From positions 29,136,001 through 29,200,000 of the forward strand of contig NC_080568.1 of the NCBI RefSeq assembly GCF_030253575.1: DNA of 64,000 bases, written 5' to 3'. This stretch comes from Rhododendron vialii (lineage: Eukaryota > Streptophyta > Magnoliopsida > Ericales > Ericaceae). This document shows, one piece after another, positions 15,038 to 57,339 of the stretch; within the stretch, counting starts at the first letter, position 1; the number at the start of each line of letters is the position of its first letter. Position numbers and translations under genes: made by a program. Under the pieces are notes generated by a model, which saw only the letters and a program-made list of their open reading frames with translations, was not told where the DNA came from and did not search any database.

Positions 15038-17887
15038 CTAGTGTGACAAAGAATGAAGATCGGCGTAGTACGTTTCGAACCATCCTTCAATGATCTTGAC
15101 CTCCACTTTTCTTTGATCTATCAACCACTGTGGATCAGTTTTCGTTGGCGTAAGAATATCCAAGCAATGGGATCCTGCAGGATTAATTAACACGCTAAAA
15201 TTTTGAACAAAATTTTAGACCAAGTGATTTTTCACACTGTATGTTTAGCTAAGAAATGGAACCAGAAATGATTTCATAAATGGTGCAGAGGCGACCGAGA
15301 CTTTTCAGAGGTCTAAAGCGAAAATGAAAGATGAGAATTTTTTTGTTGGACTAATATAAGGCTGTCAAAATAGGAAGGACCCATAAAAGCTTGTAAATTT
15401 TTGGAGGCCTAAAGTGACTGCATCTCGAGGTTACTACCATGACATTATTCTTGTAAAAGATTAAGCATAAAATATTGTGCAATGTAGTTTAAAATGGTTG
15501 AGGAGCACACACCTTTAGCAGTATGAACAGCAAGAAGAGTGTCCGATAAGTTCTCTAACACCCTGTGTTGAAAATAATTAGAATAGGATCGATGGAGCTA
15601 AGTCAAAAGTAGGTGAATCTTTCAATTTCTTTTCCTAGTATTTAAAAATGTACGTTGAGTCTAATTTACCCTCCACTGCTGTAAGGATCTCTGAGACCGT
15701 TGGAGAAAATGATGTTGCTAGCAAATCTACGGAGAACCAATTTTATATCCTGCAAATGCATTATAAATATTAGTCTTGTGCTTGGGTTAAGAATTTGAAT
15801 AAAAATAAATTATTGAGGATTAGGAGGGAGAGTTTGATTAATTATTACAAAAGTGGCTAGAAGTGAATAAATAGTTACTACTACCTCCATTCCAAAATAT
15901 TTATCTGATCTGCAGAATTTGAACGTAAAAGTAGTACATTTTTTTTAAGAACTCCAAAAAAAATTTAAATTAAAAGAATTCATTGATATCTAGTCAATTG
16001 TTGAAACTTTTTCAAAATTTTTACATTATATTTAAGTTCTTGTTCTGCGGACCCAACAAATATTTTGGTACGGAGAGAGTGTCCATCAAACATAAGGAAA
16101 AAAGAACTTACATGACCACCATAGTAGGTTGTGATCCAGTGCGGCCGAGGTGAGACCCCATACAGACTTCTGCAACCATTGATGAATTGCTTTAGATTGA
16201 AAGGATCTGGTTGAAACATTGTGTCGTTCACGCCAATGCCCACTGGTATCACCAGCTCACTGCATACCTGCCCAAAAATAATTCAATTATAATATAAGGA
16301 AAAAAAGAGTGGGCATCGGAAGGTGCTCAGTTCGAGTCCTTATTGTTTAATACAAGACCACAAGGATAGCTATATAGACTTACTTGCCAAGTCCAGCCAT
16401 CTAATTTCGATGTCGTATAGTATTCTTTGAAGGGATAGCAAGTCATGTTTCCAGCGACAGCAACAAAGCCGGCAAATATCCGGCCAAGAATATCGGTTCC
16501 TTCATTTGCTCCGTCGATTCTCTCACAGACCTGTGAAACAGGGTACGACGGCGGACTATCATATTGAGCTGCAATGGCATATATTAACTCTAAGACTCCC
16601 TTGAAGTCCCCGGAATTATCCAACGGCCTGCAAATTAAATGAAGAAAACAATTGGGCAAGCGCTACTAATTAAGGCTTTTCAAATCATGAAATAGATTGA
16701 AGATAAGGGCAGCTGGGGAATGTGCAATTTACGTGCAAGTCCTGAATTTCTTGCTAAGGATGGAGAGACCGTTCGGCTTGGAAGCGACTCTATCGATCTC
16801 AGACCATGATTTCCTTATTCTTTCGTAGCAACTATTACTAACTTCCTGCAAGAGTATTCCATGATTACTATTGTTATCACTTATGGTTGAATGTAGGTTG
16901 AAAATTAAGAAAATAAATGCAAGATTTTCAGAGATTTACTTTGAAATCCTTGGTAACAACTGAATAGTATGCATCTCGTGGGGTGGTGTCGTCAAAGTAA
17001 AGGATAGGAGCTGATGAAGCTAGAGCTCCAAGAGCAACATGGGGATACTTCAGCCGGAACCATGAAGCTAACACTTTACAATGAACATAGAAAAGATATA
17101 TTAGAACAGCTAGTACAAGAAAGCAATATTGCCTTCTCCTTAAATGTACTATGGATAATAATTTTTAGTACTTACTTCCCCCATAGGACCCTCCGACAAC
17201 AATAACCGGTGAATTATGTGCGGATAGTTTTTTCTTCAAGTAGATGATCACCTCTGCATAATCCGCAAGAGCCTGAGCCGAATTGAAATAACCACGAGTG
17301 CTGTCATTGCTCATCGCCTCGTCCGTTGTTCCAAATGGTATAGAATGTCCGTAGAATCGATGCTGATATCAGAAAAAGAATTTTCTAATGTAAAAATTTG
17401 ATGATCACTCTTTCAAACGTTCAATAGTTTGCCATCCAATACATCAATACATGTATTTGTACTAAAATATGACTTAATTTGTTTATACCTCTATGTAAAC
17501 TTGCAGAGCTTTGAAATGAGGAGCATTCTCTGAAAGAAACCCAACTGCACCCATTTGCACATCAAGTGGCTGCTCATCACCAAAGTAGACAAAGATTGGA
17601 GCACTTTCTTTTGCACCACCCCAATACTTGGAGTTGATTACATATTTTTGCTTAAAAGTTGCATAGCTCTCCGGCCTGTAGTTGAAGTGATCAAGTGTTT
17701 GGTTGTAAAAGAAGGTTTCCATGTCATTTGATGCAGAGGCTGAGATGGTATTGGATGGGCCTCTAGTGAATGTTCCATGGAGTATACTGAGCCTTGGGAT
17801 TTTGTGGGGTAAGGTAGCAGAAACAGAGGTGAGAAGGATTAGGAGAGAGAAATGAACCAATAGAAATGGAAGAGTGAGAGAGTTCAT
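15038..17887 (-). CDS. Peptidase family S28, lysosomal Pro-X carboxypeptidase-like
   Basis: The gene has nine exons on the minus strand: 17489-17887, 17176-17362, 16940-17073, 16733-16845, 16384-16627, 16112-16267, 15670-15749, 15513-15562 and 15038-15174. They join to 499 aa. S28 enzymes cleave the bond after proline at the C-terminus of peptides, usually in acidic compartments or the apoplast. Residues 1 to about 24 form a hydrophobic signal peptide. The catalytic triad is intact: Ser192 in VVGGSYGGM, Asp432 in [13 protein letters not shown] and His457 in GSHCLDI. The family hallmarks [17 protein letters not shown] and [14 protein letters not shown] are present, as are several N-glycosylation sequons (NQT, NDS, NDT, NMT). 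It is close to Arabidopsis At2g24280 from memory. The physiological substrate is unknown. The 5' side is crowded by nested MITEs that begin about 60 bp upstream of the ATG. Confidence 0.95.
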
Positions 17888-18509: not shown

Positions 18510-20520
18510 AATAAAATATTGCCACCACACAATGTGGGTCACTCACACTCTCCCAACCACCCAATAAAAATAAATGATAATGTCCCCAACGCATAATTTG
18601 TCGCTACGTGTATGGTTATAAAGAGTACCACGTAGACAACGCCACATGGTACTCCGAAAACTCCGAATTATTACTTCTCATGAAATACCTTCAAGGTTTT
18701 TTTGAAGGACAATGTCGAAAGAAGTTGCTTCAACCCAAACACCAAAGCAGAGCAACAAATTAATTTGACGGGCCTTTCTATCTCTTCAAATACGGTGATT
18801 GAACATCACTCATCAGATAGTGGGTCCCTCCATAAACAATAATCTTGTATAATTTATTTTTGTAAACAATTATATCTATCTTAAAATTATTATCATCTTT
18901 CCTTTGTTTAATGAGCCGTTCAGCAGCCGGGAGAGAATCTCCAAGTCAATGTTTCACCTACACCTATAGGATCCTTAATCAGCTCATCGTTTTGTCATTG
19001 AACGGGGTTTGTTGACAATGCCCTCGTGAACTATGGTTGGAAATTATTGCAGTATTAATTAATTAGTAACATGGGCAAAATATTTATATGCCAGTCAAAA
19101 AAGACCTCACTAGCTGACAAGTACAATATTACGATTAATATTTATAGCGTAATTTTCATTTGATCTGACACACATAATATAGCAGGAGCTAGTAGCTAGT
19201 ATGGATTCCGAACTGATGAAGCCAAGATAAGATCGAAGACTCATGCATTAATGAGATTTAGCTACGTGTGTTGCGACGAGTTATGCTCTGCCCTAGATCG
19301 ATGAGTTCAAGAGTGAGTATACACGAGCTAATTAAGTTCAACAAGTAAAAGAAAGTGATTAAAAAACGCATACGAGGGAGTGGAGTGCTTATTCAATGAA
19401 CAAGAGTCATGCCCATCTGCCTCAATATCGTCCCAAATTGCTCGCTTTTTTGGAGAATCGAGCATTTTGCACGCAAAAATAATCTGGATTTGGTCGGCAT
19501 GTGTGAGATGGTTGATTACATTAAAATACAAAAACCAGACACGAGGTAAAAAAATCCAGTCTCGTACTAAGAACTCAAATCGGCGCTGTCGCATGTGCCA
19601 GGAGCTAGCACAGGACATCCTCGTTGGCAATGTTACCAAAATCCAAAACTACCAGTGTTATTTTCTTGATCCGCGAAAGAAGAACATATTAATAGGAAAA
19701 TAAGGAGGTAATAATGCGAAAAAAGGAAGGATAACAGCACAGGATTAGGCTTGCGTAACATTCACCATGTATCTCGAAACTGGAGGCCGGTGTGTGTTGA
19801 AGCATTTTCCTTAGTTTGGGTATTTGGTTACCGCAAAATATTTTTAAGACATGTTCTCTCTACTGAACCTTGCTTAGAAAAGAAGCAATAGTTCGATAGA
19901 TCACCAAAAACTACTCTACTGTAACTTTATTAATTCTCCTTCCGACTGGGGAGGGTTTGGCTCCGAACTCATTTTGACAAACTTTACCAATACTTGAAAC
20001 AGCATCTCCGGCAAGATATATAGAAACCTTCATAATATCTTTCACCCAAGCTGAGCCCTGCTCTTTCACAAGCTAGCATATAGAGCTTCTTTATATTTCT
20101 GCACACAAAACACGAGGGGTTCCTTGAGGCCGGGATCTTGATTTTGCGCTATTTGGGTCTTGATATAGTTACCGGTGGCTGTAACATGTCTCCGCGTCAA
20201 GTCAAGAGCGACGTATCCTAGGCCGGTATAATTTTATATGGCTGATAGAACATCGGACCTCAAAGCTGCGTGACAAAAAGGAGGACTTCTATTTTGAAGA
20301 CAAACTTTGTCAACCAAATCAAATGCGCCCATTACACATGAGAGACTCAACAAGAGTGAAACCAACGAGAAGAAAGTAAAAGGAATCTCTGTCATTTCTT
20401 CCTCTTACGTACACCCCTTTTGTAACTAGTATTATTCTTGTGTGTGCACACGCACGCACATATACCTGGAAAAGTATCCTTAAAACTAAACCTATTCTGG
20501 ATATATAAAGGCATCAAGTG
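18510..20520. other. Intergenic, nothing recognised
   Basis: Open frames of about 100 codons overlap on both strands at 19328-19703, but neither resembles a known domain and both have the look of chance frames. No RNA gene was seen. Confidence 0.4.
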
Positions 20521-20522
20521 GA

Positions 20523-20795
20523 CTATTGGGGATGGGCGACATCCGCCTTCTTGAGCACGGTGCACTGGATTTGGGGGCGGTTGCGGCGCTGGTCGCGGGA
20601 GAAGAACTTGATGTCAAAGACCGTTTCGGGATCGGAGGTGGGGACGATGGCCTCTTGGGGCACGGTGGCCGGGTAGAAGACAAAGTACTTGGTGGCCTTG
20701 GGCGCAGCGTCCATGTACTCGGGGCCAGTGATCTCCCAGGGCTTCTTGATGCACCGGCAGAGGGTTTAAAGGACGGATTTGGCGGCGGAAGGCAT
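20523..20795 (-). pseudogene. Truncated copy of a small conserved plant protein
   Basis: From ATG at 20795 the minus strand encodes MPSAAKSVL, then an in-frame TAA at codon 10, and continues in the same frame with TLCRCIKKPWEITGPEYMDA and later PATVPQEAIVPTSDPETVFD and KFFSRDQRRNRPQIQCTVLK to a stop at 20523. I recall a small uncharacterised plant protein of about 110 aa with this sequence. Here the C-terminus is missing after KKADV. The block has no intron and is much more GC-rich than its surroundings, which suggests a retrocopied or otherwise displaced gene piece. The early stop makes the full frame non-functional, although translation from the internal Met at 20714 is possible. Confidence 0.7.
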
Positions 20796-20799
20796 GGGC

Positions 20800-21550
20800 G
20801 GGGAGAGGGAGCGTTTGGTGTTTAATGATTTTCCCCGGGTTTATTTGACTGATAAGGTTGAGGAGGACATGAATGCCATTGACGGAGGGTACCAGAAATG
20901 ATGATCGAGGGACCCTCCCCCAGGCCAGTGTTCCAAATTGTCAACCAACTACCAAGCAAGGAGAAGCTTTTTGTGCCTTACCAATGGTTGCGTTGATTAT
21001 TACTCTTTCGTTTGAATAAAGACCTTTGACATTCTGTTGTATATCGTCAATACTCGCGTGGGATGTGAATTCAGGTAGGTATACAATTATAATGACACGT
21101 ATCATGATCCACGGTTGATGAGCTATTCACTTGAAGTGCAGCTTGGTAGCGCGTTTGTTTTCGGTACAAAAGGACATGTTTATCCTGTTGGCTGTGATAG
21201 GTCAGTCGGCGCTTCAATAGCTTTATAGTGTACTGTACTGTTATAGCCACTCCATATTCTGCCATTCTGTGCTGTATTTGCACTTGCGACGTTGAATGCA
21301 ATGCAGAGTAATTTGAAGGGAGCAATCCCAACGTAACGTTATTTCGAGGGTTACGAGCTCCAAGCACTTCGAGGCTCCTATTATGGGCACAAGTTAGTCA
21401 TTAATTATGAAGAGAAGTGAACTGGTATCTGTCTGTGCTTCTACCATCGGCTGTACGTGCACCAACTTCTTGACCGTTCTCGAGGTTTGGATCAAGTGAA
21501 TGCTTTAATTCCCAAGCTAGTCCTGCCAATTTACAAGGTTGTCTACTTAG
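20800..21550. other. Intergenic, nothing recognised
   Basis: Short overlapping minus-strand frames have no family resemblance. The right end runs into the copia remnant. Confidence 0.35.
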
Positions 21551-21551
21551 A

Positions 21552-21850
21552 TTGTCTTGGAGTTCTAAAAAACAAAGAACAACTGCTTTGTTATCGGCGG
21601 AAGCAGAATATATGGTAGCAACAGATGCAACCTGTGAAACAGTATGGGTAAGAAGGAAGGGCCTATACTGCAACTATATGGCAATGAGCAAAAATCTAAT
21701 TTTTCATAGAAGGACAAAGCATATTGAGCTTCAACATCACTTTATTAGAGACTTGGTGCAGAAAGGAAAAATTCAGCTTGAGTTCGTCAATACCAAAGAG
21801 CAGCTAGCAAATATCGTGACCAAATCAGTAGCATCAGAAAAATTCTTTTA
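21552..21850 (+). pseudogene. Ty1/copia RNase H C-terminal remnant
   Basis: The plus frame SWSSKKQRTTALLSAEAEYM, followed later by FHRRTKHIELQHHFIRD and EFVNTKEQLANIVTK, is the classic end of copia RNase H. The segment between the two halves is shorter than usual, so the domain is internally deleted. A purine tract and an LTR start follow. Confidence 0.9.
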
Positions 21851-21879
21851 ATTTTCAGGATCTCATGAAGATTACAAAT

Positions 21880-22180
21880 TAAGGAGGAGTGTTAGAAAAG
21901 TAAATTATAATCTTGTTCTAGAAAATAATGTAGGATATGTAACAAAATACCTATAAATAGAGATCTAGAAAATTGTAATTAAGCACATGAGTTTTAACTT
22001 AACTATTCTAGAAATGGGAAAGTCGGCAAAATTGCTCTATAAATAGAGCTAAGTTGTACTCACTTTTGTAATGTAATGAAAAAGCACTTCTTAAAAAAGC
22101 CTTGTCACCTTTGTGCGAAGAGCAGACTGGCTCACAAGAGCAGAAGCATGAACACATCCACTTTCTACTTGAACATCACC
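21880..22180 (+). mobile_element. Copia polypurine tract and LTR
   Basis: The purine tract aaggaggag is followed at 21890 by tgttagaaaagtaaatta, the usual LTR start TG. The body has two TATA-like ctataaatag stretches. The right end is not clear; a plausible CA end lies near 22176. The 5' part of the element is absent. Confidence 0.65.
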
Positions 22181-22287
22181 ACCAACGAGCGAAAGAACGG
22201 ATCCACGGTGGGAACCAGTGGAATTTTCCGGTGTAAATAAACAACCAACTAGAACTCGATCCTACGACAGCGTCATCTATCGCCTAG

Positions 22288-22708
22288 TAAACTACTACAA
22301 TGGATTGTCCAAGTCTATCACCCTCTGTTTTCATTTTCCAGTGTTTGGTTAATGTTTCTGTACAAGCTATAATTAAAATAAATCGATTTGTTACCTTCAA
22401 TTGTTGTTCGCATTAGCGGCATGGACAGTGGGCTGGGCAGCAACAGCGGCCTAGGTAGCAGTCTGGGCAGTGGCATGGGCTGGGACAACAATCAACGCAG
22501 CAGGAGGAGTGAATAAATTACTACAATGGATTGTCCTAGTCTATTACCCTCTGTTTTCATTTTCCGGTGCTTGGTTAATGTTTCTATACAAGCTATAATT
22601 AAAATAAATCGATTTGTTACCTTTCAATTGTTGTTCACATTAGCGGCATGGACAGCAGCCTAGGCAATGGCATGGGTCGAGGCAGCAATCGGCGCAATAG
22701 GAGGAGCG
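22288..22708 (+). repeat. Tandem duplication of about 225 bp
   Basis: The block starting actacaatggattgtcc at about 22292 recurs at 22517 with few changes. Each copy ends with a small plus-strand frame from ATG (22431 and about 22648) that is rich in Gly, Ser and Arg. The first reads MDSGLGSNSGLGSSLGSGMG and stops at 22514. Both frames end in clustered arginines, although their lengths differ. The sequence cttaaaaaagccttgtcacc occurs at both boundaries (22090 and 22709). Confidence 0.75.
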
Positions 22709-22739
22709 TCTTAAAAAAGCCTTGTCACCTTTGTGCCTA

Positions 22740-23329
22740 TTAACACCTCTGACCCATCATTTCTTTACAAATTCCACTATCTTGTTCAATTTTCTTCAAA
22801 TTCTAACTAAGCACCTCAACATGGGCTTCTGGTGAACATCTATTAACCATATTACTACTCTATTGAGAAGTGCAAGTCATGCAAGTCAGTTACAAGGCAA
22901 AATCATCAATTACTCTAAGAAGATTATGGCAGCTTTCAATTCCAATCCATCTTGGAAGGTAAACCATGGGAAATCTTCAAAGGTACTATCATTTTGGAGA
23001 AAGGTATCAGTAGGGGAGTTCGCGTTGAATCTATCAATTAGGTACAAGTGTGAAATCTATAAAAGCATGTTAAGTCCCGTATTTCATACATTCAAAGCAA
23101 GAGAATACAGAGGCTTTGGCAAGAGGTAGCTCTATATATAATAATTCAAGAGGTGTGACCCCTTTCTTTATTTCTTAATGAATCTCAGTAACTGCATGAT
23201 CTTAATCTTGAAAGTACTAAGTGTAAGCCTCGTTCCCTCAATCTTTACAGTACCAAGACTTAACCAAAAGAACATGAAAAGAGAAAACAAACACACACAC
23301 GCAGAACACAGAGCATGAAAGTTCCTTGC
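22740..23329. other. Intergenic, nothing recognised
   Basis: A plus-strand frame of 88 codons at 22863-23129 has no recognisable domain. The rest is AT-rich. Confidence 0.35.
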
Positions 23330-23705
23330 CTAAGTCGCTTGAGTAGCTCTGGTAGTGTCTGTGGTGGTGGAAGCAAAAAGATACATAGGCCCTCTGTTGT
23401 ATTGCCCACTGCAACAAATCAAATTTTGAAAAATTAATTTTAGAATAATTAACTTATCAAAAAAGAGAGAGTCAAGATTGTGACTCACCATTTGCATGAG
23501 TTCTAACAATACAATAACGCCAGCGGCAATGCCGACCGGGATCCACAGAGAGGTTTGTAAGAAGGTCATATAAATGGTACTGCTCAGGCTGGTCACCACT
23601 GTTGCTAGCGCACTTGCAGAGTGGACATCCCCGAACAACGCCCAATTGCAGATTACCAAAGCCTAGACGGTGTTGACACCGATGATGACTGATAGAAACA
23701 GTCAT
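23330..23705 (-). pseudogene. Unidentified membrane-protein-like fragment with a stop codon
   Basis: One minus-strand frame reads SVIIGVNTV, a TAG stop, then ALVICNWALFGDVHSASALA and TFLQTSLWIPVGIAAGVIVL, followed by LELMQM. This is two or three hydrophobic segments. It ends at a good donor (ATG|GTGAGT near 23490), and a possible acceptor lies near 23409. I do not recognise the protein. Because of the stop and the transposon-rich setting, a gene relic is more likely than a working gene. Confidence 0.3.
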
Positions 23706-23717
23706 GGATTACACTGA

Positions 23718-23787
23718 GCCTTGGGATTTTGTGGGGTGAGGTGAACAAGGGTGCAAAACCAGTCATACATATGTCAAAACGGAGCGC
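23718..23787 (+). repeat. 70-bp direct repeat, left copy
   Basis: It begins gccttgggattttgtggggt and includes agtcatacatatgtcaa. It is nearly identical to 27459-27528. The two copies bracket the gypsy-derived block exactly. The left part is also similar to exon 1 of the S28 gene. Confidence 0.85.
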
Positions 23788-23788
23788 T

Positions 23789-24422
23789 GTAGGATCCGAT
23801 TTCTCTTTTCAAGACCCTTACGTGCCAGCTGAGTTCCCTATTATGTACGGCCAGCATCAGCAGCTGAGGGCGAATTCGCCAAACCAGAGGGAGGTATACA
23901 CGGCTCAACATCCAAGCCCATGGAGAAGGGCTAATCTCGAGAGGGAAATCCGTGACATACTAGAAAGTATACCAGGCTTTGACATCAGGAGCGAACCCTA
24001 TTACTCACATTATAGGGATATGGATAACCAGCTTCCGATTCCCACCCCAGACCGGAACCATGACTCTCCCAACATTCAGGAGGAGGATGGTTTTCTACTT
24101 CCGCAGTTAGCTGGGCCATCTCATCCTCCTCCTGAATGTTGGGAGAGTTATGGTTCCGGTCTGCGGTGGGAATCGGAGGCTGGTTATCCATATCCCTATA
24201 ATGTGAGTTATTGGGTTCGCTCCTGATGTCAAAGCCTGGTATACTTTCTAGTATGTCACGGATTTCCCTCTTGAGATTAGCCCTTTTCCATGGGCTTGGA
24301 TGCTGAGCCGTGTATACCTCCCTCTGATTTGGCAAATTCGCCCTCAGCTGTTGATGCTGGCCGTACATAATAGGGAACTCAGCTGGCACGTAAGGGTCTT
24401 GAAAAGAGAAATCGGATCCTAC
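23789..24422. repeat. Inverted duplication of gypsy gag region (hairpin)
   Basis: The left arm 23789-24089 and right arm 24122-24422 are reverse complements over 301 bp with about 11 mismatches by eye, mostly transitions. They are separated by 32 bp. Both arms encode the same peptide when read outward-in (VGSDFSFQDPYVPAEFPIMY and onward). The spacer continues the coding frame of the right arm only, so the right arm is the original and the left arm the inverted copy. Confidence 0.95.
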
Positions 24423-24491
24423 GGTGTTTTCCAAGAAGTCTTGCAATCTGCTCCATTCATCGGCTAGTTGGTCTGCAAACGTGGGGTCCAT
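24090..24491 (-). CDS. Gag-like N-terminal fragment of a Ty3/gypsy element
   Basis: The frame starts with ATG at 24491 (MDPTFADQLADEWSRLQDFL), 30 bp after the primer-binding site, where gag should begin. It runs about 130 codons to AQLTAEVEN and then enters the inverted copy, where it is no longer genuine coding. There is no capsid core or zinc knuckle, so it is only the amino end. The assignment as gag rests on its position. Confidence 0.65.
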
Positions 24492-24521
24492 CTAAAAAAA
24501 AAACAAGAAAATCACATACCT

Positions 24522-24534
24522 GGCTCTGATACCA
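24522..24534 (-). promoter_or_regulatory. Primer-binding site, initiator tRNA-Met type
   Basis: The minus strand reads TGGTATCAGAGCC, the standard plant retrotransposon primer site for initiator methionine tRNA, two bases after the LTR end. Confidence 0.9.
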
Positions 24535-24536
24535 TT

Positions 24537-26994
24537 TGTAACGCCCCGACTTTTCGGGAGCAAAATAAAATACTTTCTTACGAAATTTTTTCTAAATAAA
24601 TATAATTTTTCAGAATAAAGGTTTAATTATTACAATCTCAAGATAAATTTGTTAAATCAAAATACATTAACTCCAGAGCTGACTCTAGGCTTGATACGGA
24701 TCCCAAGCAAACTCGATCTCTGTCCCTAGTATTCCTTTTGTGTCTGACTGCTCCTCCATTGAATCCTGCACCCTCTGGCAAATTGATCGCCGAAGCAATC
24801 GATTTACCAGGATACAGACGTATCCGTGAGTGATAAATCACCCAGTAGAATAATCCAACCCAACTACCCCTCTTACCTTAACAGTTAGCAAGTAACAGGA
24901 TAATAAAGATACGAAAAGTAGAATAGAAATTCACAAACATCAGCTTATTACTATTCATTATTCTAATGTGAAATCTAAGATCCATCCGCGAGATCTTTCC
25001 TCCCCAATCGCTAGTCATGCTCGGTCTCATGAGATCACTTCCCTTTGCTGTCGCAGATACACCTAAGTTATATACCGAGTGTGCATCCTAATAACTACAA
25101 CAATGGAAAGCTTATCATGCCTGAATCATGCCTAGGGTTCGCTTATCTTATGTACCACTTCACAAACTACATCACAATCACCACTGGACACCCGTCAGTA
25201 TCAATTCATCACTGGACACCAGCCAGTTTTAATTCTCATCGCAAATCTCATCACAATCTCAAAATCTGCCTGCAGACAATCTCAAAATAAAAACTTTCCA
25301 GTTTATCCATTATCTAGCATCGTTTAGATGAATTCTATTTCGCATACCACCCCATGTCTCTATGGTCCAATCTAGCATTTAAATCAAGAGTTGGAGTAAT
25401 ATACAAATAATCACATCAAAAATTGAAATAAACAAAAAGCTAGAGAATCACGTAAGTTTTTATGAATGGACCGTTGTCCTTAATCTTGTATGGCCAATAA
25501 GTTAATTATTACAGGAAATCTTTATTTAATAAACATTATTATTATTTACCTATAAAATATTAGCTAAAACAATACAATCATAATATATATATATATCAAC
25601 TATGGGGCCGAACATTACAGTTAATCACCTCCGGGTATTGATTATAATATATAAAACCCGTATTATTAACATTCAGGACCAAAATATAAACTTAATAACT
25701 TCAGCGGTCAATTTTAACAACTTATACATGCATAAGGGCCAAACTTAACACACATATCAAACTAAAAGGGCTAAAGGGTAATTTTCAACCAAATTTTCAA
25801 ATCCCACTACGTGGGTTTACAGAATACAATCGGCAAAACAGAGGAAGATGGCCGGTTCCGGCCACACAACGTCGGGGTCGATTTTTTTCATTCCAGAACA
25901 TAAAATTCGTACGTAATCACTCAATATACTTAGGAGAAGGTAAGAGAGGGATTATAATACCTTTAATCTAGACAAAACGATTCGGTGGAATTCGGTGGGT
26001 TTTCGTTTGACAGCGAAAGATCGGTATTCTAGCAGTAACTTTGGACTGGAATAACTTGACCAAACCTTTTCCGTTTTGGACGATTCTTGTGTTTAACGCG
26101 AAAATCTTGAAACGCTCTACAACTTTTGTGAAGAAGTCGAAGCCCGAAAACCATTCGAACTAGGAGAAAAGTGAGGGTTTTCATAAGTCCTGTTTGCTGT
26201 TTAGAAACAGAAATCCGAAAATTTCACTGAACTTTAGACAGCGATAATTCTTTCAATCCTTGACTGTTTTGGGTGATTCTTGGGTCGAAATCGAAGCTCG
26301 TGAAGAAACTTAGGCCAAAAAAACTTAGGCCTAAAAACGACAGCAACTAGGAGAAAACAGACTGTGAATAGAGAGACGTGATATGGACGAAAAACGAAAG
26401 GGTGTGATCCCTCTTTTCTTGTTTTTTTTTGTTTTTATAGTGGACTAGGAGTGTTGTATTGCGAGAGGGGAGAGAGGTATTTATAGAGGTGGGGTGGAGT
26501 GGGGTGCAAAGAGGAAGGAGATAAGGTCGAATTTAATGATTTGGAAAAGATAAAAAGTTTAGCCTAAAAAAATAGAAATAGGGGGATGGTTTCCTTGGGG
26601 AGAAAGAAAAAGAATTATTGGAGAGAGAGAGAGAGATAGACGGCTGGGAGAGGGAGAGGGAGAGGGAGAGGGCCGAGATATTTGTTTTTGATAAAGGGGT
26701 GATGAACGGATCAAAAAAAATAAAGGGGTGATGAAAAAAATACATATAAGGAAATTTTGATAACTCAATTTAAACTAATATAGAGTATAATCTATAATTA
26801 TCTAACTAACTTTATAAGGAAATAATTTTTTTGTATAAGATTATAATTTAACTTATTTAAATTTTTGGATCATCATAACATACGGGTAAATATATATATA
26901 TATATATATATTGACAGATACTAGTCAGTTTAAAAATACAAGATATAAATTTTTATTCAAAAAAAAAATTAGTGAAAAAATTAGAGTCGTTACA
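24537..26994 (-). mobile_element. Ty3/gypsy LTR, about 2.46 kb
   Basis: On the minus strand it runs from TGTAACGACTC at 26994 to GGGGCGTTACA at 24537, the usual TG..CA ends. Upstream is a polypurine tract (GTTAAGGAGGG) and downstream a primer-binding site, so the single LTR serves as pol-LTR-gag. The interior has a GA-rich stretch (about 26611-26675), an (AT)n run near 26890 and no long open frame. Only one LTR copy is in the window. Confidence 0.85.
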
Positions 26995-27000
26995 ACATAC

Positions 27001-27458
27001 CCTCCTTAACAAAATTTCGTCCTCGAAATTAGGGTGAAAGTTCTGGTGGAAACCGACGAAGGTAGTTTACGTGCATAATATCTTATCGCTCCCAAGTTGA
27101 TTCCTTAACTCCTCAATGTTGCCAAAAGATTCGGACGGGTTGAATGGTTTTGCGTTGGATGCACTTCTCACTATAATCATGGATCTCTACGGGCTGTTTT
27201 CTTGAGAGTGACGTCTTTGTTGAGAGTGACGGTTTTCCCAGTTTGAAAGGCCAGTGGTCTACTGACTCAGCACTGCCAAAAGTCGTTGAAAGATGATCTT
27301 AACCTTTTCTGTTGTCCCTCAAACTAACACTGGTTCTAATAGGCTTGTTTCTCCTAATTTTGTCCAACAAACTGGGGATCGACAAGGATGCCCATACAAA
27401 ACTTCGTATGGTGTCATTTCTATGCTGGTTTGATCGCTGATAGCTAATGAAATCACAT
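27001..27458 (-). pseudogene. Ty3/gypsy integrase C-terminal remnant
   Basis: The minus strand encodes MTPYEVLYGHPCRSPVCW, then KLGETSLLEPVLV and a stop; after a deletion it has traces of PVRIFWQH, ESTWER and the terminal phrase before GGACGAAATTTTGTTAAGGA. This is the conserved end of gypsy pol. Several frameshifts and stops make it non-functional. Confidence 0.85.
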
Positions 27459-27528
27459 GCCTTGGGATTTTGTGGGGTGAGGTGGACAAGGGTGCAAAAC
27501 CAGTCATACATATGTCAACATGAAGCGC
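27459..27528 (+). repeat. 70-bp direct repeat, right copy
   Basis: This copy matches 23718-23787 and starts immediately after the integrase remnant. Confidence 0.85.
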
Positions 27529-27529
27529 C

Positions 27530-28140
27530 TACGTACAAAAGTAGAGCGCCAAAATCAACATCACATGTGAAATCACCACGCAAATTAATCAGAATTGGGC
27601 CTAAGCCTAAATTATGTTTCCATAATTCCAAAGTCCAACCCAAATGGTGAGGGTCTCCGACTCGTTCCAGTCCTTTTGTGGATATGGTGGGCTACTTTAA
27701 TTACCAGTTAGATAGATCCAATCCAAAAGGCCGACACAGAAGTCCCATAACGAGGCTGGATGGAGTACTAATAGCTGAAAAGGTCAAAAATAATCAGAAG
27801 ACATTTTTTTAGGTGAAAGAGCAAGATTTTCAATATATTGACAAGGAAAAAACTACAACACCATAAAAGGAAAAAAGAAAACAATACCTGAACAAATGCA
27901 CAGACAAAAAGCAAGAGCCGTCAATATAGAAGCTTCGGTGTTGGAAACCTGCACCATTCCGGTCACGAAAGTGATATTGGAAAAACCCGGCATGGTGGTG
28001 ATCAACGAAAAAGTGCAAGGAATTAGGGAGATCGAAATGGTGTCGACAACGTACATATTCTGCATGTTTTACTGTTTTATTTGAAGCCACCAATTACCGA
28101 CCATTCAATATTCCAACTTGTAGTGGGAGTTACTGTGGCC
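27530..28140. other. Intergenic, nothing recognised
   Basis: Overlapping frames at 27830-28093 include a hydrophobic stretch, but I recognise no protein. Confidence 0.35.
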
Positions 28141-28149
28141 TTATATTTT

Positions 28150-28619
28150 TCCTACAATTGAATCTGACTGCCCAAAATCAAATCCTCCAAATCCCTCACT
28201 TCAGGAAGAACACAATGCATCTTTCGAAACATCAAACACTGTTTCTGAATAACATCCACTCCCATGGACTCCCATGATCATCCAATTGCAAGATACCATA
28301 TTTGGCTCGATCCTTTTTTCTCCATGTCCTCAAAGACCTCCTTTACATCACTCTCATGTCCTACCCGAGCATAGCCCGAAACTAAAGCAATCCAAGAAAT
28401 CACGTCTGGTTTAGACATTTCATTGAGCAGTTTATGGGCATCCTTTAATTGACTGCATTTGACATTTATGTGAACCAAGGACGACGGAACAAAGGGATCT
28501 GAACCGAACCCGGATACCGACGCAATGCCATCCAGCTTTGAGGTTAGATAGAGCAGTGCATGATTTGCCACTTTGGGGAAGATAAAGGCATTCGTGAAAA
28601 TAAACTGAGTTTTGAGCAA
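28150..28619 (-). pseudogene. PPR gene fragment
   Basis: The minus strand encodes AHKLLNEMSKPDVISWIALV, then SGYARVGHESDVKEVFEDME, which is one PPR motif and part of the next. After a frameshift near 28290 it continues with CLMFRKMHC and LEDLILGSQIQ, typical of the following PPR units. The frame change and lack of the rest of the array mark it as a pseudogene. It resembles a different PPR gene (At1g20230-like) from the intact one at 2032-3678. Confidence 0.75.
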
Positions 28620-28968
28620 GCATAGATCAGGGAGTGAATCCAGGTGTAGAGTTTGTATGTATCAGCGAAATCAGAGGTGAGGTGATAGACGTAGAGTGAG
28701 AGGAAAATCTTTGAAACACAAAATAACTATCATCAAGTATTTATATATGTTCTGGGAGAATCGTGTTCCATTAGCGCGAGTTTCGTATTTGGCTCAACCT
28801 CGCGTCTTGAACCTGGGATCTGTGTTATGACAAAAGCATGTTCGCGGGAAACGCTTTAGGCAGGAGCCAAAAAAAGCCCGAACGCGGATGTATAAAACAC
28901 GAGTTTGGTTTTCACTAGACTTCGCATTTTAACCTGCGAAGTATGAAGAAGAAGATTTCTATCCCTTA

Positions 28969-29372
28969 TTTGGTAATTTTCAAACTTATTTTGGAGTTAT
29001 TTTGATGATCTGGTTTGTCCATTTTGACGATATTGTCCATTAAAATTATTGTGTACAACATGAAGTCAATCGGATACCTGATGGTATTTAATCGGAGAAG
29101 ATATATCTCGAAAAAAAATGAAAAAAAGAAAGCTAGCCACACTTGATTACAACCTTATATAACGTGAGTAGACTTCTCCGCCATTTTTGGCAATTTCGAC
29201 CTTATTTTAGAATTGATTTGAAGATCCGATTCGTCCGTATTGTAGAGCTTGTTTATTAAAATGATTTTAAAAAATATCAAGTAAATCGAATGCCTAATGG
29301 TATTTGATCAGAGAAGATATACACCGAAAAAAAATGATAGAAAGTTAGGTGCGCACACTTGATTACAACCCG
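28969..29372. repeat. Diverged tandem duplication of about 215 bp
   Basis: 28969-29157 and 29187-29372 share gatggtatttaatcggagaa (with changes), a run of A with tgaaaaaaagaaag, and cacacttgattacaaccc. No coding role is visible. Confidence 0.7.
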
Positions 29373-30198
29373 GAAGTTTTTTTTTCTTTCTCAAAAGGCC
29401 TTTTTGGTCGTAGTCCGTTTTGATCAAAAGTCGACCTCGCCGCCGATCCGAGTTCCGATCACTGAGTCAGCCGGTAGAGGTGTGTCAGCGACGCAGCGTG
29501 TCTGATTTGGCTATCAGAAATAGACCCACATCTTAAGCCTCAGAGCGTCCGATTTCGCGGCCAAGAATGTGAGTAACAATCTAATTAATAGCTTTGTGGG
29601 TTTTGATTTTATGTGGATTACGGTGTTAGAAATTGGCCCAAGGTACTGATCGACTGCAAATTAAGCACATATAATGAGGTTTTTGTGGGTACTTTGAATC
29701 CTCTTTTAAAATTTTGGATACCTGTTGTGAAATGAAAATGGTGTTGGAAGGAAAAAAAAGATTAAATTTGAGTTAATCACTACCCTTTCAAATAAGATAA
29801 GATAGAGAAACACAAAGGATAATTGGAAAAGAAGGGGGGGAGGGGGGAATTATTGAAATGATGTGTGCAGCTCATTCCAGAGAAAGTGAAATTAGGCATT
29901 GAGCTCTCTCACCAACGTACAAGTGAACTTCAAAATTGTATGGCATGAATATTGAGGTTGTATCGAAAGGAAACGTATTTTCCATTCCAAGTGTTCTTCG
30001 ACAAAGAGGAAGGAGACGGGAGTAAAGAAAAGGAAGAGAAAATGGATTCCTCAGGATGACTAAATATGAATTCTTGAGCTGTGTGAGGGACACTAAACTC
30101 TGAAACCGAAGAAGAAGGATCTGGTTTCTCAGATAAAAATGATACAAGAGTAGAGATAGGTTTCGTTTAGTGGTATGAATCTTACGTTAGAACGAGGA
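29373..30198. other. Intergenic, nothing recognised
   Basis: A GC-richer patch lies around 29440-29560. A 91-codon minus frame at 29872-30147 has no recognisable domain. Confidence 0.35.
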
Positions 30199-33248: not shown

Positions 33249-33250
33249 TA

Positions 33251-33465
33251 CTCCCTCCGTCCCTAAATAAGTGTCCGGCGCGCAAAACTAGGCTTTACAA
33301 AACATGCATATTTTCTATTAAAAAATTTAATTTTTTTTCACAATCTAATAGAACTCATTGCTATCTATTGATTTGTGAAAAAAAATTAATTTTTTTAGCC
33401 AAACAAATGCATCTTTTTGAAGGCCTAGTTTTGCGCGCCGGACACTTATTTAGGGACGGAGGGAG
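33251..33465. mobile_element. Stowaway-type MITE
   Basis: The ends are ctccctccgtccctaaataa and its mirror ttatttagggacggagggag, with arms of about 45 bp and TA on both sides (33249-33250 and 33466-33467). Confidence 0.95.
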
Positions 33466-33467
33466 TA

Positions 33468-36342: not shown

Positions 36343-36716
36343 TGCTACAGGTACAGAGTTCTGCACAGACAGGCGTACAGCGCTCGTTTGGGCCTGTCCG
36401 GGTCCAACAAAGATAATCGGAGCCGCTCATTTTGTTCAATATGTTTTGCTTAAGGTCCCTGAAAAAAATCAGCTCCATCCGACATCGATAAGAGCGTTTG
36501 CGAAGCGTCCAAAATTGCTTTGAAAATTTTCTAAAGCAATTTTGAATGCTTTGCAAACGCTCTTTTCGATGTCGGATGGAGCTGATATTTTGCACGGACC
36601 TTAAAAAATATATATTGAACAAAATAAGCAGCTCCGATTATCTTTGCTGGACCCGAGACGAGCCAAAATGGGCGCTGTACGAGCTGTCTGTGCAGAAAGC
36701 TGCTGTACCAGCAGCA
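36343..36716. mobile_element. Foldback element B
   Basis: About 374 bp, almost entirely two inverted arms. The outer arm includes ctgcacagacag and gtacagcgc. The middle part has ataatcggagccgctcattt. The inner part has atcagctccatccgacatcg. A 21-bp direct repeat, gctacctgaatatagagaaat, precedes it twice at 36299-36341. Confidence 0.85.
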
Positions 36717-56968: not shown

Positions 56969-57339
56969 TGCTATGGGTACACCATTTGGTGTACACCAAA
57001 TGTACACTGCCTTCTATAGAACCCACTTAGAGATCTCATCTAAATGATCAGAGCCGCTCAATTTTTTCAAAATATTTTTTTAAACATCCTTGTAAAAAAT
57101 CAACTCCATTGGATATCGGTAAACGCTTGATCAATTCTACGCTTGATTTGCTGACAGAAAATTGGGCGTAAAATCGATCAAGTCTTTACCGATATCTAAC
57201 GGAGCTGAATTTTTACAGCACTGCTTAAAAAAATATTTTAAAAATATTGAGCGAATTTGATCATTTGTGTGGGACTCTTAAGTGGATCTCATAGAAGACG
57301 GTGTACACTTGGTGTACACCAAATGGTGTACCCATAGCA
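56969..57339. mobile_element. Foldback element C
   Basis: Terminal arms start tgctatgggtacaccatttg and carry the perfect palindrome tttggtgtacaccaaa. The middle part has atgatcagagccgctcaatt and the inner part caactccattggatatcggt, homologous to elements A and B. It is about 371 bp and almost wholly inverted repeat. Confidence 0.85.

What the first reader, a model, noticed from the sequence alone, without database searches (positions are those of the whole stretch)
23789..24422. Near-identical 301-bp inverted duplication of a gypsy gag segment with a 32-bp loop
The two arms differ at only about 11 positions by eye, mostly transitions, so the duplication is young compared with the decayed pol next to it. 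A transcript across it would fold into a long double-stranded RNA matching an active gag region. Such hairpins (for example Mu killer in maize) can found small-RNA silencing of a whole transposon family. The molecular origin looks like a fold-back template switch, since only the right arm continues the coding frame through the loop.
Basis: partly seen in the sequence, partly recalled or inferred. Interest (0 to 1): 0.75.

Follow-up and report, generated by a model that had tools for sequence, protein, structure and literature searches.

The report
LTR-led inverted retrotransposon gag duplication
A plant chromosome carries a scrambled fragment of a jumping gene, inserted between two copies of a short stretch of host DNA, in which part of the gag gene is folded back on itself; its RNA could form a long hairpin, but nothing here shows that it is made or silences anything.

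Summary
But the hairpin is one end of a 3.67-kb composite insertion (23788-27458). On the minus strand this reads: pol 3' end, polypurine tract, one complete 2,458-bp LTR, PBS, shortened leader, gag 5' end, loop, gag backwards. That is the order across a shared LTR (tandem or one-LTR circle), not a provirus. A 70-bp host duplication (94%) flanks the whole, where Ty3/gypsy integration would leave about 5 bp (recalled). Arms and flanking repeat are similarly diverged, so one event is the simplest reading: retrotransposon DNA copied or captured at a staggered break, with a fold-back, about 1.4-2.7 million years ago (recalled rates). Both arms come from one copy. No other tight gag pair is among the 33 matches listed. 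The LTR points into the hairpin and each of 25 compared gag copies shares perfect 24-mers with it, so a silencing role is possible but untested. Ordinary in kind, tidy in anatomy; silencing is a lead, not a finding.

The parts
23718..23787 (.). Left copy of the 70-bp host direct repeat flanking the insertion
   Evidence: 66 of 70 identical to 27459-27528; as a whole found only at these two places in a genome search with 23300-23788
23789..24089 (+). Left arm: fold-back (reversed) copy of the gag segment; gag sense on +
   Evidence: 11 of 301 mismatches to the right arm; sister of the right arm in a tree of 27 rows, support 0.76
24090..24121 (-). Loop; native gag continuing from the right arm
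   Evidence: 19 of 25 related copies match through the loop to 24090 and then continue differently after one shared base
24122..24422 (-). Right arm: gag segment in native context
   Evidence: Contiguous with the gag start and the loop; 24089 to about 24500 at 93-96% to 6 copies
24423..24491 (-). gag 5' end, ATG at 24491-24489
   Evidence: 98% and 99% to C9 and C11 copies; open frame 24491-23985
24519..24534 (-). Primer-binding site; about 100 nt of the leader seen in related copies is missing between it and gag
   Evidence: (window against 6 copies); pattern searches
24537..26994 (-). Complete LTR (TG...CA ends), 2,458 bp; putative TATA box near 26485
   Evidence: 91.4% to a C10 LTR over 24708-26995; that copy has 5-bp direct repeats at its ends (read by eye) and the same TATA box; ends printed
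26995..27458 (-). Polypurine tract and 3' end of pol (integrase C-terminal remnant, recognised by eye), broken at 27458
   Evidence: 82% to C2:11624407-11624888; several copies match to about 27434-27442; stop-to-stop pieces
27459..27528 (.). Right copy of the 70-bp host direct repeat

Best explanation
One mutational event put a rearranged piece of Ty3/gypsy DNA into a chromosome break. The break was staggered by about 70 nt; filling in both ends duplicated 70 bp of host DNA (inferred). Between the filled ends lies retrotransposon DNA read across a shared LTR (pol end, LTR, PBS, gag), as in a one-LTR circle, a tandem element or an unfinished cDNA (order shown, source inferred). Synthesis or joining then turned round inside gag, with 1 nt of microhomology, and ran back 301 nt before being joined to the other end (shape shown, step inferred). 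The locus now has an LTR promoter pointing into an inverted gag repeat. If transcribed it must make a hairpin RNA, but I think it most likely that it is a passive scar that makes at most ordinary heterochromatic siRNA.
For: The 70-bp repeat lies flush with both ends of the composite (1 extra nt at 23788; right copy starts at 27459). Its divergence, 4 of 70, does not differ from that of the arms, 11 of 301 (Fisher p 0.50). As a whole the repeat was found only at these two places. The window order gag-LTR-pol end differs from that of three related copies (L017, L019, L021), where pol end and gag lie about 5.4-6 kb apart inside one element; the single LTR carries both a native 5' junction (PBS, as in L053) and a native 3' junction (pol end, as in L024). 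Both arms share a base seen in 0 of 25 other copies and are sisters in the tree, support 0.76. Literature: small tandem duplications arise by fill-in of 3' overhangs and end-joining (PMC8355091, abstract and passages); fold-back insertions arise at breaks (PMC11724301, abstract and passages).
Against: The empty site could not be seen in a related genome. A 301-nt fold-back is longer than those measured in the yeast study (2 to about 150 bp, most under 14 bp), although the same paper says longer ones had been reported before. The turn has only 1 nt of microhomology. The LTR belongs to a different subfamily (91% to a solo LTR; 80-86% to the six gag-bearing copies compared, and only over part of its length) from the gag (up to 97%), so at least two templates or a recombinant parent are needed. 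The predicted junction of a simple circle of a deleted element was not found elsewhere. The arms are unequally changed, 9 against 2 by the majority of the six closest copies, p 0.065.
Confidence: 0.6

Rival explanations
1. LTR-promoted silencing hairpin. The LTR drives RNA through gag and its fold-back; Dicer-like enzymes cut the duplex into 21-24-nt siRNAs that act in trans on related gag copies, as proposed for Mu killer.
For: LTR oriented into the hairpin with a TATA box shared with the C10 LTR. Duplex MFE -603.7 kcal/mol, 0 of 20 shuffles as stable. The arms still share 95 of 278 24-mers exactly, and each of 25 compared gag copies has perfect 24-mers in common with one arm or the other (6 to 134 of them).
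Against: No expression or small-RNA data. About 2.1 kb lies between TATA box and hairpin. No sign of constraint: 8 of 11 differences break pairs in the sense transcript, 3 are wobbles. Single-copy in this genome as far as searched (a lower bound). Other sources of siRNA against such families are expected anyway (recalled).
Confidence: 0.12
2. Reverse-transcription by-product: template switching between two packaged RNAs plus self-primed fold-back made a chimeric linear cDNA, which integrase or end-joining put into the chromosome.
For: Chimera of an LTR/pol end of one subfamily with gag of another. Complex LTR elements by template switching are proposed (PMC1950507, part 1 of 2 of the text read).
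Against: Integrase insertion should leave about 5 bp of duplication outside two outer LTRs; here there are no outer LTRs and 70 bp. A cDNA captured by end-joining merges with the best explanation.
Confidence: 0.2
3. Several separate events: an LTR-pol fragment, a gag fragment and a later inverted gag copy accumulated at one site.
For: Different subfamilies for LTR and gag; unequal numbers of changes in the arms.
Against: One 70-bp repeat brackets the entire composite, with divergence like that of the arms. Arms are sisters sharing a private base. The loop is exactly the native continuation of one arm.
Confidence: 0.1
4. Assembly artefact, such as a palindromic chimeric read.
For: Palindromes are a known failure of long-read libraries (recalled); no reads could be checked.
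Against: 11 substitutions and no indels between arms, the left arm agreeing with the majority of the six closest copies at 9 of them. The arms stop at a non-palindromic flanking repeat. No N in the window.
Confidence: 0.03

Closest known systems
Mu killer (maize)
   Same: A rearranged partial transposon with an inverted duplication of its own coding region, proposed to give a hairpin RNA (PMC3440606, abstract and passages).
   Different: DNA transposon with two terminal repeats and about 1.3 kb of inverted mudrA; dominant silencing reported. Here a retrotransposon gag of 301 bp, its own LTR upstream, and no silencing data.
Complex or tandem LTR retrotransposons sharing an LTR
   Same: Internal-domain sequence on both sides of one shared LTR (PMC1950507, part 1 of 2 read; PMC11899658, abstract and outline).
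   Different: The template-switch class of PMC1950507 has three LTRs, two complete cores and 5-bp target duplications. Here one LTR, truncated internal pieces, a fold-back and a 70-bp duplication.
Tandem duplications from staggered breaks
   Same: Short host duplication at the site of repair (PMC8355091, abstract and passages; the rice study of Vaughn and Bennetzen 2014 was seen only as a reference there and is not held).
   Different: Here the two copies are separated by a 3.67-kb composite insert; it is not a bare tandem duplication.
Fold-back inversions at double-strand breaks
   Same: Inverted copy of adjacent DNA with a loop of tens of nt (41 nt in the yeast case) and end-joining on the other side (PMC11724301, abstract and passages).
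   Different: 301 bp here against 2 to about 150 bp there; 1 nt of microhomology at the turn here against an imperfect 10 nt there.

Membership tests
Ty3/gypsy LTR retrotransposon (source of the DNA) | Protease, reverse transcriptase and RNase H in related copies (assignment of these families to Ty3/gypsy is recalled) | tested here: met
   L016 open stretches match RVP_2, RVT_1, RT_RNaseH; the two gag stretches scanned match nothing
Ty3/gypsy LTR retrotransposon (source of the DNA) | LTR with TG...CA ends, PBS and polypurine tract | tested here: met
   PBS and polypurine tract recognised by eye
Intact provirus | Two LTRs flanking gag-pol with a 5-bp target duplication | tested here: not met
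   One LTR, order gag-LTR-pol end, 70-bp repeat
Mu killer-like silencing locus | Inverted duplication of a transposon coding region | tested here: met
Mu killer-like silencing locus | Hairpin or antisense transcript and small RNAs | not testable with these tools
   No RNA data; folding only
Mu killer-like silencing locus | Dominant silencing of related elements in trans | not testable with these tools
   Needs genetics
Break-repair insertion with flanking duplication | Direct repeat of target DNA bracketing the insert, longer than an integrase duplication | tested here: met
   70 bp, 94%
Break-repair insertion with flanking duplication | Empty site with a single copy of the repeat | not testable with these tools
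   No relatives held for this genome
Tandem or one-LTR-circle LTR structure | Internal sequence on both sides of one LTR in head-to-tail order | tested here: met
Tandem LTR retrotransposon (template-switch class) | Outer LTRs alike and 5-bp target duplication | tested here: not met
   No outer LTRs, 70-bp repeat
Known microRNA or other Rfam RNA | Match at gathering score in 20000-30000 | tested here: not met
   0 matches

The most novel reading that the evidence does not exclude
Break repair can in one step place a retrotransposon's own LTR promoter upstream of an inverted copy of its gag, making a self-contained natural RNAi cassette against the family; this locus would be a retrotransposon counterpart of Mu killer.
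Probability: 0.1. Interest if true: 0.65.

Novelty: new member of a known kind. Interest (0 to 1): 0.33.

Why it matters
How silencing of a plant transposon is first installed is still poorly understood (so says the abstract of PMC11624286, seen in the listing), and hairpin-making rearrangements are one candidate trigger. This locus has the right anatomy and is easy to test with small-RNA data, since the loop, the turn and 11 arm differences help to tell its RNAs from those of other copies. Even if it is silent, it is a well-preserved record of retrotransposon DNA being copied or captured at what looks like a staggered break, with a datable fold-back.

Tried and rejected
Idea that the PBS stretch was copied from the tRNA primer itself: the window matches a plant initiator tRNA end (recalled) further than its relatives do, and the exact 23-base LTR-end/PBS string is unique in the genome (1 exact match; the 55 other matches listed all have 2 mismatches; a 30-base version was found only in the window at up to 3 mismatches). 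A 2-nt deletion in a relative's PBS plus a leader deletion explains it as well, so it was dropped.

Idea that the pol-LTR-PBS part is exactly one lap round a one-LTR circle of a deleted element, because the same 9 bases begin both the pol fragment and the leader: the predicted junction was found only in the window itself, at 2 mismatches, and the leader bases are two transitions from a relative's. Not supported.

Known small-RNA family: none in 20000-30000. Six window ORFs were scanned against Pfam (host-flank ORF 23330-23662, the gag ORF, and four more); only the PPR fragment at 28278-28661 matched. A literature search for LTR retrotransposon, hairpin RNA, inverted repeat, trigger silencing and gag together gave no paper; another with six terms gave two, seen as listings only. 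This is no proof of absence from print.

The first script for comparing arms had the wrong orientation for five of six copies and was redone. The '8 vs 1' p value printed was mislabelled and is not used. The tree and k-mer counts used 25 of the 31 matches other than the two arms listed; the 6 weakest (76-82% identity) were not fetched.

Full report
What is there. The inverted duplication is real and placed as reported: arms 23789-24089 and 24122-24422, 301 bp, 32-nt loop, 11 substitutions and no indels. Exact inverted matches reach 71 bp, against at most 18 in 200 Markov controls of the same 4 kb. The window lies on contig 12 of a 532.6-Mb, 13-contig genome.

The larger structure. On the minus strand the gag ATG is at 24491; six related copies carry 93-96% identity from 24089 to about 24500. 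Upstream lie a PBS at 24519-24534 and a complete LTR at 24537-26994 with TG...CA ends. Beyond the LTR come a polypurine tract and the 3' end of pol to about 27458. In three related copies (L017, L019, L021) the pol end and gag lie about 5.4-6 kb apart inside one element. Here they sit on either side of one LTR, which has a native 5' junction on the PBS side (as in L053) and a native 3' junction on the pol side (as in L024). This is the order of a one-LTR circle or a tandem. The leader between PBS and gag is about 100 nt shorter than in related copies.

Two sources. The left gag arm is closest to copies on C11 and C9 (97%). The LTR is closest to a C10 LTR (91% over most of its length), a solo LTR judging by 5-bp direct repeats at its ends, read by eye, and then to the two LTRs of a C2 element (90 and 89% over the first 950-970 bp searched). 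The six gag-bearing copies compared have 80-86% over parts of 24819-25506 and no match in the rest of the LTR towards the pol side. So the insertion joins two subfamilies. The pol-side part of the LTR, 25600-26950, could not be searched on its own.

The flanking repeat. A 70-bp sequence lies directly outside both ends of the composite, 23718-23787 and 27459-27528, 66 of 70 identical. In a genome search with 23300-23788 it appeared as a whole only there; the other five matches are 38-41-bp pieces of a serine-carboxypeptidase-like exon (family name recalled) that overlaps the left copy. Its divergence (4 of 70) and that of the arms (11 of 301) do not differ (Fisher p 0.50). With rates of 1.3e-8 and 7e-9 per site per year (recalled) the arms give 1.4 and 2.7 million years, the flanking repeat 2.3 and 4.3 with a wide interval.

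The arms. Across 25 other copies the arms share one base seen in none of them (arm position 67), and they are sisters in a FastTree tree of 27 rows with support 0.76, so one is a copy of the other or both of one source. By the majority of the six closest copies the right arm is the odd one at 9 of the 11 differences and the left at 2; by the majority of all 25 it is 8 and 3, since at position 120 the right-arm base is in 14 copies and the left-arm base in 11. The 9-against-2 inequality is not significant (p 0.065). At the turn, 19 of 25 copies can be followed across, and native gag continues differently after one shared base.

How it probably arose. A staggered break, filled in to give the 70-bp duplication and closed with retrotransposon DNA that turned back on itself, fits all the parts in one event. 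Fill-in duplications at 3' overhangs (cultured cells, PMC8355091) and fold-back insertions at breaks (yeast, PMC11724301) are both documented; I read abstracts and passages of these. Copying from a circle, a tandem or a half-made cDNA cannot be told apart here. The template-switch complex elements of Triticeae, rice and maize (PMC1950507, part 1 of 2 read) and the tandem elements of rice and other plants (PMC11899658, abstract and outline) are relatives in form, but the former keep outer LTRs and 5-bp target duplications.

What it could do. The LTR points into the hairpin and has a TATA box at about 26485, 2.1 kb before the right arm, that the C10 LTR also has. The folded sense transcript reaches -603.7 kcal/mol against a mean of -201 for 20 shuffles. 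The arms share 95 of 278 24-mers with each other. Each of 25 compared gag copies has perfect 24-mers in common with one arm or the other, from 6 to 134. These are conditions for a silencing locus, not evidence of one. Among the 33 matches (a lower bound), no other pair lies close together, and in each of the 25 fetched copies only one gag match was found in the span held (19 of them about 1 kb on each side, 6 of them 9.9 kb in all). In the sense transcript 8 of 11 differences break pairs and 3 are wobbles, which shows no constraint. No Rfam family matched in 20000-30000.

Verdict. A genuine, well-preserved fold-back inside what is most simply a break-repair insertion of retrotransposon DNA. 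The Mu killer comparison holds for anatomy only.

Noticed in passing
L021 6535-6914 and 8500-8879 (G000:C7:33.92 Mb): Another fold-back in the same family: a 380-bp inverted duplication of LTR sequence, 94.7% identical, with the LTR partly reversed.
   Followed up: partly
L020 4350-4522 and 4602-4773 (G000:C1:39.09 Mb): A 173-bp inverted pair, 93%, about 80 nt apart, some 200 bases past the point where a gag copy loses similarity to its relatives.
   Followed up: no
window 23703-23742: A 40-bp piece 92.5% identical to 17776-17815 in a serine-carboxypeptidase-like gene (recalled family) of the same window, overlapping the left 70-bp repeat; similar pieces at four places on C13.
   Followed up: partly
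window 27458 inward and 24517 inward (minus strand): The same nine bases begin both the pol fragment and the shortened leader beside the PBS; chance or a trace of template switching.
   Followed up: partly
window 56969-57339, 36399-36655, 33249-33467: Palindromes of 185, 128 and 104 bp per arm with 1-11 nt between arms, 80-88% complementary, like MITEs.
   Followed up: no
window 22288-22707: Two 110-bp direct copies at 95%, 226 bp apart, continuing into an 85-bp pair at 74%.
   Followed up: no
L049 (G000:C2:11620000-11629900): A two-LTR element with a short internal region (about 3 kb), in which no copy of the window's gag was found; a relative of the window's LTR and pol end.
   Followed up: partly
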